From Leptospiraceae bacterium (GTDB taxonomy: Bacteria > Spirochaetota > Leptospiria > Leptospirales > Leptonemataceae): 64,000 nucleotides of DNA. The notes under the pieces were generated by a model that was not told the DNA's origin, did not search any database, and saw only the letters and a list, made by a program, of their open reading frames with translations. Below are positions 14,797-62,134 of this stretch, piece by piece. Positions within the stretch are counted from its first letter, which is position 1. Each line of letters starts with the position of its first letter. The position numbers and the translations under genes were made by a program. Location: assembly GCA_025059995.1 (NCBI GenBank), contig JANXCF010000001.1, positions 62,001-126,000 of the forward strand. Reading direction: 5' to 3'.

Positions 14797-14877
14797 GCTT
14801 CATAATTATATCGACTTTGAAAATAATGCAATTCATTTTTTTATTGATTTTTTAAGTTTAATATATTTGTTGTTGTT

Positions 14878-15429
14878 GTGATTCTATCAGGATTAGAAAT
14901 AAAGAGAAGACTGGGGAAAGACATTATCATTGATCCCTTTGAAGAAAAATTATTGAATCCGAATTCCTATAACTTGAGGCTTCACAATGAACTTCTCGTA
15001 TACAAAAACGAGATATTAGATATGAAAACTCCCAACGAAACCGAAACCATCACTATTCCCCCAGAAGGATATATTCTCGAACCCAATAGACTTTATTTAG
15101 GAAGAACTTATGAATACACGGAAACCTATAATCTAGTTCCTATGTTGGAAGGACGTTCATCGATCGGAAGGTTGGGGATTTTCATTCACATCACTGCGGG
15201 TTTTGGAGATGTGGGATTCAAAGGCTATTGGACCTTAGAAATCTTTGCTATACAGCGTGTTCGAATTTATCCTTTTGTTCCTGTTTGTCAAATCTTTTAT
15301 CATACTATCGAAGGTGAATTTTTTGAATACAAACATGGTAAGTACCAAAACAACAGAGGTATCCAACCCAGTTTCTTATACAAAGAAATCCACGAGTGGG
15401 ATATGTATGGCAAAAAGAATTTGGGCTAG
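14878..15429 (+). CDS. dcd: dCTP deaminase
   Basis: 183 residues beginning MILSGLEIKRRLG, the usual Dcd start, from a GTG codon. It has NPNSYNLRL, the phosphate-binding loop EGRSSIGRLG, and GFKGYWTLEI with the catalytic glutamate. It deaminates dCTP to dUTP (or to dUMP if bifunctional), feeding dTTP synthesis. Sequence alone does not let me separate the mono- from the bifunctional type. The end overlaps the next gene by 23 bases. Confidence 0.92.
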   Translation: MILSGLEIKRRLGKDIIIDPFEEKLLNPNSYNLRLHNELLVYKNEILDMKTPNETETITIPPEGYILEPNRLYLGRTYEYTETYNLVPMLEGRSSIGRLGIFIHITAGFGDVGFKGYWTLEIFAIQRVRIYPFVPVCQIFYHTIEGEFFEYKHGKYQNNRGIQPSFLYKEIHEWDMYGKKNLG

Positions 15430-15805
15430 TAAGTTTCGATTTTATTTGTGGATGGGAGCTCTTCCTTTTCTTTTTGTGGGATTTCTTTTTTTGTTTTTCC
15501 CAGGATTTACTTTCCTATGGTTGAATATCGAACAAACCGAATTTTTAATTTTACTTTTTCGTTTTTTGGGAGTCGGTCTAATTTACATTTTTTTGTCGTT
15601 CATTTATATAGGTAATCAACCTAACCTCCACAGAGATTTAGCTCTTTACCAATCCATTTTTTTGTTTTTGATTTCTATCTTGACAGGTTGGTATGTCTTT
15701 ACGGGTCGGCTAAGCTGGTTTTGGATTCTTGCGATTATTTATGGTTTTGGATATGGTTTATTCTTATTTTTATTTGCTTCAAAAAATTTATTGATTAGAG
15801 AATGA
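15407..15805 (+). CDS. Small integral membrane protein, unknown function
   Basis: About 132 residues, [17 protein letters not shown]..., with four predicted membrane segments ([66 protein letters not shown]). The open frame extends further upstream, but that part lies inside dcd in another frame, so I start at the ATG at 15407. No family recognised; the four-helix plan resembles several small uncharacterised inner-membrane families. Overlap with dcd suggests translational coupling; cysE follows within about 20 bases. Confidence 0.6.
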
Positions 15806-58901: not shown

Positions 58902-60008
58902 TTATTTTTTCTTCACTGAACCCTTAACAAAAGGAGGTTTGATAGTATAGGCTCTTTGTTTTTTCCCTCGAATTTCGATGTGGATTTCTTTTTCTGGTTC
59001 TTTATACAAGAAAGGAAGAAAAGCTGTTCCTATTCCTTTTTTTAAAATGGGCGAGTAGCTCCCACTCAAAACCACACCAATCTCAAGACCACTTGTCGGA
59101 TCAAAAACCAAATTCCCTTTTCGTGGGATGGCAAAATCTGACATCAAAAATGGTATCACCATTTTCTCTGGGTTTGATTTTTTTTGAAGTAGCAATTTTT
59201 CTTTCCCATAGTATGAGATTTCTTTTTCTTTTACCACCCATCCTATGCCAGACTCAATGGGCGTTTTTTCTTCGTCCAGTTCGTTTCCGTAGAGAGGATA
59301 CACGGCTTCTAATCGTAAGCTATCCCTCGCTCCAAGTCCACAAGGAATCACACCCTTTTTGAAAAAAGTTTCCCACAATTCCAAAATGACAGAATGTTCA
59401 GACAAAAATTCAAAACCATCTTCTCCCGTGTATCCTGTTCTTGCAATTCGTAGAGTTGAGTTGCTGTATTCAACATCTATAAAGTGATAATACTGCAATT
59501 CTTTGATGTAGTTTTTTTGAGTAGGAAATACTTCTACTGCTATTTCTTCAGCCTTTGGACCTTGGAGTGCTATCATGGAGATTTCTTCACTTAAATTCTG
59601 GATCTCCACTTGATGTTCTTTTTTTTCATTTCGTAAGTAGTCATAAATCTTTTGCGTATTTGCGGCATTCACAATCAAAAAAAATGAGTATTGATTTTCT
59701 CTAAACATCGTCACATCATCCTTTACACCACCTTCGGGATTTAAAATGACGCTATATCGGATTTGACCTATTTTCTGATCTGCTACGAAATTTGGTGTTA
59801 GTTGTTCCAAAAATTGAATCACATCTTTTCCTTGAATTCGAATTTCCCCCATGTGAGAAACATCAAACATTCCTACGTGATTTCTCACAGCAAGATGCTC
59901 TTCGATAATGGATTGGTATTGAATAGGCATTTCCCATCCCGCAAACTCCACCATCTTGGCTTTTTGACTTATATGAAAAGAATACAAACTCGTCTTTTTC
60001 AGTTCCAT
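58902..60008 (-). CDS. gcvT: Aminomethyltransferase (glycine cleavage T protein)
   Basis: 368 residues. The T protein of the glycine cleavage system, which moves the aminomethyl group to tetrahydrofolate and releases ammonia. Conserved blocks: FAGWEMPIQYQSIIEEH, GMFDVSHMGEI, ARTGYTGEDGFEF, GLGARDSLRLEAVYPLYG. The C-terminus is basic (KGSVKKK). No gcvH or gcvP gene is in the window. It converges on crcB with three bases between stops. Confidence 0.94.
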   Translation of the reverse strand: MELKKTSLYSFHISQKAKMVEFAGWEMPIQYQSIIEEHLAVRNHVGMFDVSHMGEIRIQGKDVIQFLEQLTPNFVADQKIGQIRYSVILNPEGGVKDDVTMFRENQYSFFLIVNAANTQKIYDYLRNEKKEHQVEIQNLSEEISMIALQGPKAEEIAVEVFPTQKNYIKELQYYHFIDVEYSNSTLRIARTGYTGEDGFEFLSEHSVILELWETFFKKGVIPCGLGARDSLRLEAVYPLYGNELDEEKTPIESGIGWVVKEKEISYYGKEKLLLQKKSNPEKMVIPFLMSDFAIPRKGNLVFDPTSGLEIGVVLSGSYSPILKKGIGTAFLPFLYKEPEKEIHIEIRGKKQRAYTIKPPFVKGSVKKK

Positions 60009-60170
60009 AGGAAAGAATTTAGATCAAAAAATAAAAACAAAAACTAAAGCAAACTTTTTTTGATTCGCATATGGTTTGAATCATCCTATCGAATTATGGT
60101 AGGCATGATAGGTATGGTAGAAAATAAAAATTTTGCCCTCTTTTTTTAGCAAAGTAGAACAAAAATTCAT

Positions 60171-60813
60171 GTGCCATTGTCAAAATCAAAAAAATGTATA
60201 TTCTCTTATCTTCAAAACTTATCAATTCAATTTTTCGAAAGGAAAAAAGAAAAACAAACATTAATACCAACGAATTTTCATCTAACAAAAGCATGCAATT
60301 ACAAGTGTATCTATTGCTATGCTACTTTTGAAGATATCAAAGAAAAGGGTCTTTCTTTTGAAGAACAAAAAAAGCTCATCTCTCTTTTGGCAGATTACAA
60401 AGCTTTTAGAAAAATCAATTTTGCCGAAGACGAAACCATTTTAGTCCCACACATAAAAGCATGCGAAAAAGTTGGGTTTTGAAACTAGTCTAGTCACTAA
60501 CGGAAATAGGATCAATCCAGATTGGATAAAGGAAATGAAAAATTATCTCGATATATTTTGGTTTTGAGTATCGATAGCCTAGATCATCAAACTAATTTAT
60601 CGATTGGAAGAAAAACCTCCAAGAATCATACACTAAATAAAAATAGAAGTTGCTAAAACATGCCATACTCATAATATAAACTCGAAGATCAACACCGTAG
60701 TAAGTAAATACAATAAAAACGAAATATTTACTTCTTTTATCAATGAAGTTAAAACTTATTATGTAGAATTAGTAAAAAAACGCTTAAAGAAAACGAATGA
60801 AAAGAATTTATAA
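60171..60813 (+). pseudogene. Decayed prokaryotic viperin-like radical SAM gene (pVip relic)
   Basis: Joined across frames, the region translates to a viperin-like sequence. Segment 1 (60171-60482): NFHLTKACNYKCIYCYATF with the CX3CX2C cluster, then KINFAEDET where radical SAM viperins have KINFxGGEP. Segment 2 (from 60481): TSLVTNGNRINPDWI...YLDIF. Segment 3 (from 60564): LSIDSLDHQTNLSIGRKTSKNH. Segment 4 (from 60643): SKINTVVSKYNKNE. These align in order with viperin YLDI...CDS, IGR...KNH and KINSVINRFN. At least three frame changes (near 60480, 60565, 60640), no GGEP, and the C-terminal third is missing. Intact viperins make antiviral chain-terminating nucleotides (ddhNTPs). Confidence 0.8.
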
Positions 60814-60844
60814 AATGAAAATGAGAATTCCTTAAATCCTTTTA

Positions 60845-62134
60845 TCATTTAAAAAAAGTATCTGAGATTCGATGGATTTTCTTTACGAGTACTTTCACAT
60901 ATCCACCTGAGAGGTGGATGTATAGTTCTTCTTTTTCTTTGATTTCTTCTATGGATTTTTTGATTTGCTGATCCTTGCTTCTCACTATCGCATAGCCTTT
61001 TTCAAGCGGGAGTAGGGGATTTAGGAATTCAATTTTTTCATTTAGAATTTGAAATTTTGAAAAAATCTTGAGGAAAACTTTTTCTGCAAATACAAAGAGG
61101 GATTTTTCCAAATTTTCGAATCTGTTTTGGGATTTTTCTAAGATTTTCTCAGGATGAGTAAAAATGACTCTCTGGGATAAAGCAGTAAATTTCGTTTCTT
61201 TGGATTTTATCTTATTTAATGAGCTGAATTCGATTTGTCGTTGGTATCCATCAAGTTTTTTCATGATTTCCGAAACATCAGGGACAGAAATTTCAACTGC
61301 TTTTGTGGGGGTGATTGCTGATTTATCTGCAGCTAAATCAGATAAAGGTTTATCGATTTGATGTCCAACAGCAGAAACTATAGGAACTTGAGAATTTGCA
61401 AAAGCACGAACTACAATTTCACTACTGAAAGCAATCAAGTCCTCAAAAGAACCACCACCTCTCCCAGCAATGATGACATCTACTTTTCTTTGATTCAAGA
61501 GTTGGATGGCTTGAGCGATACTTTCCTCTGCTCCTTTCCCTTGAACAAAACACGGTGCTATGACAATGTTAATAGGAGGAAAACGTTTTCTTGCAGACTG
61601 AACGATGTCTCGTAAAGCCGCACCAAACAACGAAGTAGCTACTCCCAAGGTTTTGGGGTACTTTGGCAATTCTCGTTTTCTTGCCTCATCAAATAAACCT
61701 TCCTTTTGGAGGGTTTCTTTTAGCTCCTCTATTTTTTTGAGTACTTCTCCTTTATCTAAAACAACGGAAAAACTCCTCACAATAAACTGGCATCTTCCAT
61801 TTTTATCGAATAAAGTGATATATCCCAGAGCTCGTATTTTCCTTCCATCTTTCAACTCAGAGTTGTCTTTTATGGAGCTTGAATTGAATATGACACAATC
61901 CAAGGTTACATCATTTTCTTTTAAAGAGAAAAATATTTTGTCATTGTGGGGTTTGTAATTGACTATTTCTCCTTCAATCCAAATGTTTTTGAATTCACTT
62001 TGAGAGGTAATCAACTTCTTTATTTGGCTCAGGATTTGTTTTGGTGTATATACATTCTCTTCCCACTGCAGGGGAGTTTGAGTTATGTCAATTTGATTGA
62101 TTACGCTGTAACTCTCGATAGTATTAATTTCCAT
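60845..62134 (-). CDS. xseA: Exodeoxyribonuclease VII large subunit
   Basis: 429 residues. An N-terminal OB-fold (KNIWIEGEIVNYKPH...GRCQFIVRSF) precedes the XseA catalytic part with SLFGAALRDIVQSARKRFP, IAGRGGGSFEDLIAFSSE, and SAVGHQIDKPLSDLAADKSA(I)TPT. It degrades single-stranded DNA with the small subunit XseB, which is not next door. It overlaps the start of the transporter gene by 11 bases, which suggests co-transcription in this leftward unit. Confidence 0.94.
   Translation of the reverse strand: MEINTIESYSVINQIDITQTPLQWEENVYTPKQILSQIKKLITSQSEFKNIWIEGEIVNYKPHNDKIFFSLKENDVTLDCVIFNSSSIKDNSELKDGRKIRALGYITLFDKNGRCQFIVRSFSVVLDKGEVLKKIEELKETLQKEGLFDEARKRELPKYPKTLGVATSLFGAALRDIVQSARKRFPPINIVIAPCFVQGKGAEESIAQAIQLLNQRKVDVIIAGRGGGSFEDLIAFSSEIVVRAFANSQVPIVSAVGHQIDKPLSDLAADKSAITPTKAVEISVPDVSEIMKKLDGYQRQIEFSSLNKIKSKETKFTALSQRVIFTHPEKILEKSQNRFENLEKSLFVFAEKVFLKIFSKFQILNEKIEFLNPLLPLEKGYAIVRSKDQQIKKSIEEIKEKEELYIHLSGGYVKVLVKKIHRISDTFFK

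What the first reader, a model, noticed from the sequence alone, without database searches (positions are those of the whole stretch)
60171..60813. Relic of a prokaryotic viperin gene between gcvT and xseA
Read in three frames, this 640-base stretch carries, in the right order, the viperin hallmarks: CX3CX2C in KACNYKCIYC, a KINF strand, TNGNRI, YLDIF, IGR..SKNH and KINTVVSKYN. The GGEP motif, needed for SAM binding, reads EDET; each change is one base away (GGA>GAA, GGC>GAC, CCC>ACC) if the ancestor was GGEP. There are frame changes near 60480, 60565 and 60640, and the C-terminal third is gone. It looks like an antiviral gene in decay, flanked by housekeeping genes, with no nucleotide kinase partner nearby.
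Basis: partly seen in the sequence, partly recalled or inferred. Interest (0 to 1): 0.82.

Follow-up and report, generated by a model that had tools for sequence, protein, structure and literature searches.

The report
Decayed prokaryotic viperin (antiviral) pseudogene
Between two ordinary housekeeping genes this bacterium carries the broken remains of a viperin gene, an antiviral enzyme gene shared by microbes and animals; it is a convincing but unremarkable case of a defence gene being gained and lost.

Summary
Window 60264-60804 (+) encodes about 178 codons of a prokaryotic viperin (pVip, a radical-SAM nucleotide dehydratase), spread over two reading frames with three frame switches. The four open fragments match viperin profiles one after another (positions 5-66, 68-96, 98-124, 128-168). 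They are the four best hits among 2,565 stop-to-stop fragments of the window; the next best scores 4.5 bits, and 300 shuffles gave at most 9.6. Viperin clearly outscores other radical-SAM families. The CX3CX2C motif survives; GGEP reads EDET, no start codon lies at the usual place, and the C-terminal third is absent here and from the rest of the assembly. Even with perfect frames it would be dead, so sequencing error cannot rescue it. The rest of the window is densely and cleanly coded. No other genome searched in the same family (21) has a viperin; intact ones (up to 41% identical) occur in a sister family of the order. The gcvT-xseA junction does not exist in the three congeners; the relic lies at a synteny breakpoint, so an orthologous empty site cannot be shown. 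Ordinary defence-gene gain and loss; low to moderate interest.

The parts
60264..60456 (+). Viperin relic, segment 1 (frame 0): N-terminal part with CX3CX2C (60294-60317), KINF strand, and EDET (60426-60437) where intact viperins have GGEP
   Evidence: pVip profile E=3.4e-15, positions 5-66; viperin_w_prok 50.3 bits; frameshift-aware alignment
60460..60557 (+). Viperin relic, segment 2 (frame 1): LGFETSLVTNGNRINPDW...YLDI
   Evidence: pVip E=1.3e-6, positions 68-96; viperin_w_prok E=9e-6
60561..60638 (+). Viperin relic, segment 3 (frame 0): VLSIDSLDHQTNLSIGRKTSKNHTLN
   Evidence: pVip E=3e-5, positions 98-124; viperin_w_prok E=8.5e-5
60643..60804 (+). Viperin relic, segment 4 (frame 1): IEVAKTC...KINTVVSKYNKNE...; homology fades after about 60741-60750; the last third of the gene is missing
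   Evidence: pVip E=3e-6, positions 128-168 of 257; C-terminal profile finds nothing in the own assembly while it finds the C-termini of three control genomes
60171..60263 (+). Unmatched in-frame leader of the mechanical ORF 60171-60482; not part of the clear viperin homology
   Evidence: best pVip match starts at residue 34 of this ORF; codon list
58902..60008 (-). gcvT, aminomethyltransferase, intact flanking gene
   Evidence: NCBIfam NF001567 411 bits, above cut-off
60845..62134 (-). xseA, exodeoxyribonuclease VII large subunit, intact flanking gene
   Evidence: NCBIfam TIGR00237 383 bits, above cut-off

Best explanation
It is a pseudogene of a prokaryotic viperin. Inferred history: an ancestor carried, probably by horizontal acquisition, a viperin that made chain-terminating ddh-ribonucleotides against phage. 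The gene was abandoned, then lost its SAM-binding GGEP motif by missense change, its frame by three small indels in or next to short A or T runs, probably its start codon, and its C-terminal third by deletion, possibly with the rearrangement that joined this spot to the 3' end of xseA. It now makes no enzyme. Shown: the homology, the broken frames, EDET, the missing C-terminus and the synteny break. Inferred: the past antiviral function, horizontal origin, and the order of events.
For: Four collinear fragments in viperin profiles, far above all other window fragments and shuffles; 38-41% identity over about 155 residues to intact viperins of the same order across the frame switches; best PDB matches are all viperins; nine of ten plasmid hits are annotated viperin. 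Decay marks: EDET for GGEP; C-terminal third missing from the whole assembly, with positive controls; total GC 28.6% and GC1 34.5% against 45.6 +/- 6.3% GC1 for window genes, intergenic DNA about 27.5% GC; the only non-coding stretch over about 335 bp in 64 kb of otherwise dense intact genes. No viperin in 21 other genomes of the family; the neighbours of xseA and of gcvT differ in congeners.
Against: Raw reads could not be checked. The tree does not resolve which viperin clade the relic came from, so vertical loss after an older gain is as open as a recent transfer. The GC1 shift is only about 1.8 sd, and low GC could partly be foreign origin. The assembly is about 96% complete, so an intact copy in the missing part cannot be excluded.
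Confidence: 0.94

Rival explanations
1. The gene is intact in the organism and the frameshifts are sequencing or assembly errors.
For: All three shifts lie in or next to short homopolymers (A5, T4GGT4, A5), typical of indel errors; reads are not available.
Against: Neighbouring genes and the rest of the window are intact; GGEP is missense, no start codon sits at the usual place, and the C-terminal third is missing, none of which indel errors explain.
Confidence: 0.02
2. The fragments derive from another radical-SAM family (MoaA, AhbC or a SPASM maturase) rather than viperin.
For: The CX3CX2C segment alone also matches other radical-SAM profiles at E 1e-5 to 1e-7.
Against: Viperin leads by 20 bits on segment 1 and is best for segments 2-4, the only family for 3 and 4; PDB gap from 1e-17 to 0.005; MoaA has the lowest alignment score of the set and is the longest branch in the tree.
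Confidence: 0.02
3. A remaining ORF (103 aa with CX3CX2C, 60171-60482) is still expressed as a small iron-sulfur or regulatory peptide, or the frames are joined by recoding.
For: The ORF is the longest open piece and keeps all three cysteines.
Against: No relative with this truncated architecture was found; promoter-like sites are at chance level; three switches within about 200 bases and a missing third argue against recoding.
Confidence: 0.02

Closest known systems
Prokaryotic viperin (pVip / SAND; PADLOC PDLC02903 and PDLC02904, NCBIfam NF038283)
   Same: Sequence match over about two thirds of the profile in order, CX3CX2C, KINF strand, TNG, GR, KINTVV motifs
   Different: Frame broken three times, GGEP is EDET, C-terminal third and start missing, no adjacent kinase
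Intact viperins of the same order: G027:C220 (L005), G024:C26 (L004), G023:C10 (L006)
   Same: 38-41% identity across the frame switches for G024 and G027, 37% for G023
   Different: Intact, with GGEP and full C-terminus; a thymidylate-kinase-like gene lies directly next to the viperin in G027 and part of one about 1 kb away in G023; different genomic context
Disrupted second viperin copy at G023:C67 (L135) and disrupted copy at G273:C56 (L133)
   Same: Viperin genes with a frame break inside the reading frame
   Different: Only one break and full length, so much younger or possibly artefactual
Animal viperin RSAD2 (PDB 5vsl) and viperin-like enzyme 7n7h
   Same: Best PDB matches, E about 1e-22, including the IGR..KNH region
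   Different: Functional enzymes with GGEP; the tree does not group the relic with them

Membership tests
Prokaryotic viperin (pVip / SAND) | Best match to viperin profiles over other radical-SAM families | tested here: met
   All four fragments, collinear
Prokaryotic viperin (pVip / SAND) | Curated whole-protein cut-off (NF038283, 180 bits) | tested here: not met
   50.3, 25, 21.9 and 26.1 bits for the separate fragments; as expected for a broken, truncated gene
Prokaryotic viperin (pVip / SAND) | CX3CX2C [4Fe-4S] motif | tested here: met
   CNYKCIYC at 60294-60317
Prokaryotic viperin (pVip / SAND) | GGEP-type SAM-binding motif | tested here: not met
   EDET at 60426-60437, aligned under GGEP of intact viperins
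Prokaryotic viperin (pVip / SAND) | C-terminal region that closes the active site | tested here: not met
   Absent here and in the assembly; C-terminal profile works on three control genomes
Prokaryotic viperin (pVip / SAND) | One continuous reading frame | tested here: not met
   Three frame switches
Prokaryotic viperin (pVip / SAND) | Converts NTP to ddhNTP and protects against phage | not testable with these tools
   Enzymatic and phage assays needed; a functional member is excluded by the features above, so it is filed as a pseudogene of the family
Kinase-associated viperin system | Adjacent nucleotide kinase | tested here: not met
   tblastn of four viperin-linked kinases against the window and flank: nothing better than E=0.59 and nothing near the relic
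MoaA and other radical-SAM families | Best profile match | tested here: not met
   Lower than viperin on every segment

The most novel reading that the evidence does not exclude
The 103-aa remnant with an intact CX3CX2C motif is retained and expressed as a non-catalytic iron-sulfur peptide with a new role.
Probability: 0.02. Interest if true: 0.55.

Novelty: new member of a known kind. Interest (0 to 1): 0.25.

Why it matters
It records a lineage that once had a viperin and lost it: no other sampled genome of its family has one. It fits the known pattern of gain and loss of defence genes and gives a fossil of such a loss, but it changes no picture of viperin function. It also shows that annotation by intact ORFs undercounts past defence genes.

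Tried and rejected
Orthologous empty site at gcvT-xseA: not available, because the two genes lie on different contigs or about 165 kb apart in the three congeners. Phylogenetic placement: unresolved, relic branch long. C-terminal piece moved elsewhere by the rearrangement: not found in the assembly. Phage origin: one weak partial hit only; plasmid hits are at most 39% identical. Flanking repeats or mobile-element ends: only short A/T-rich matches. A supposed 448-bp gap at 14797-15244 that might have been a second pseudogene is an intact gene, 14878-15429, that reads like a dCTP deaminase. The primary viperin papers (Fenwick 2017, Bernheim 2021) are not held.

Full report
What is there. The stretch between gcvT (58902-60008, -) and xseA (60845-62134, -), both intact by NCBIfam, holds four viperin-like fragments on the + strand at 60264-60804. 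They were searched separately. PADLOC pVip models match them at E=3.4e-15, 1.3e-6, 3e-5 and 3e-6, at successive profile positions 5-66, 68-96, 98-124 and 128-168. NCBIfam viperin_w_prok is the best family for each. Against a profile built from intact viperins without the relic, the same four fragments are the four best of 2,565 stop-to-stop fragments in the window (58.2, 31.6, 28.0 and 14.1 bits; next 4.5), and 300 dinucleotide shuffles of the region give at most 9.6 bits.

Family. The fragment with the cysteines also resembles other radical-SAM enzymes, but viperin leads by about 20 bits, and for segments 3 and 4 viperin is the only family. Read across its frames for a search, the relic matches nine solved viperin or viperin-like chains at 1e-17 to 1e-22, then nothing better than 0.005. 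It is 38-41% identical over about 155 residues to intact viperins of two genomes of the same order and 29-39% to plasmid-borne viperins. A tree keeps it among viperins but does not resolve its place.

Why it is dead. (1) Three frame switches, at about 60447-60471, 60557 and 60627-60642, in or next to short A or T runs. (2) EDET at 60426-60437 where intact viperins have GGEP; in another radical-SAM enzyme, BlsE, every single GGEP substitution tested abolished activity (PMC3715490), although the same paper notes that BioB tolerates change there. (3) No ATG, GTG or TTG in frame between 60180 and 60275, where viperins begin. (4) Homology ends at about profile position 170 of 257; a C-terminal profile finds nothing in the assembly but finds the C-termini in three control genomes. 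Points 2-4 stand even if every frameshift were a sequencing error. GC is 28.6% against 36-37% in the flanking genes, and GC1 is 34.5% against 45.6 +/- 6.3%, as expected of drift toward intergenic composition, though only about 1.8 sd.

Assembly quality. The window is densely packed with intact genes. Apart from the relic's region (836 bp between gcvT and xseA) no non-coding stretch exceeds about 335 bp, so a general excess of indel errors is unlikely.

Context and history. No viperin was found in the other 21 genomes of the family; in the phylum 21 of 393 genomes have one at E <= 1e-28, including three of the sister family in the same order. The gcvT-xseA junction is not found elsewhere in the genus: in G003 the two genes are about 165 kb apart, and in G001 and G002 they are on different contigs. 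In G002 and G003 a convergent gene adjoins the 3' end of xseA; its homologue in the own genome lies about 156 kb away. The relic therefore sits at a synteny breakpoint, and loss of its 3' part with a rearrangement is plausible but not shown. No kinase match lies near it, whereas G027 and two plasmid viperins have a kinase beside them. Asgard viperins protect E. coli from T7 (PMC11291487), and bacterial viperins make ddhCTP, ddhUTP and ddhGTP (PMC10732462); that this ancestor did so is inference.

Verdict. A real, well-supported viperin pseudogene. Ordinary in kind; modest interest as a fossil of defence-gene turnover.

Noticed in passing
L135 (G023:C67:21285-21959 and upstream): A second viperin copy in a genome of the same order that also has an intact one; its frame breaks once, right before the GGEP motif. 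A further disrupted viperin is at L133 (G273:C56). Viperin disruption recurs in this phylum.
   Followed up: partly
L134 (G319:C124): A truncated viperin that ends at the end of the held contig stretch; probably an assembly edge, not decay.
   Followed up: partly
window 58902-62134: Synteny breakpoint: the conserved block xseA, AI-2E-type permease and next genes is shared with G002, G003 and G008, but the gcvT side is not.
   Followed up: partly
window 14878-15429: Intact gene that reads like a dCTP deaminase (by eye, not profiled), overlapped by a slightly longer out-of-frame ORF (15245-15805) without a Pfam match.
   Followed up: partly
L006:99-1373 and L004:1375-2565: Genes next to intact viperins in G023 and G024 encode long proteins without a Pfam family over its cut-off; L004's has weak NERD and Card1-like nuclease matches. 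Possible viperin partners.
   Followed up: no
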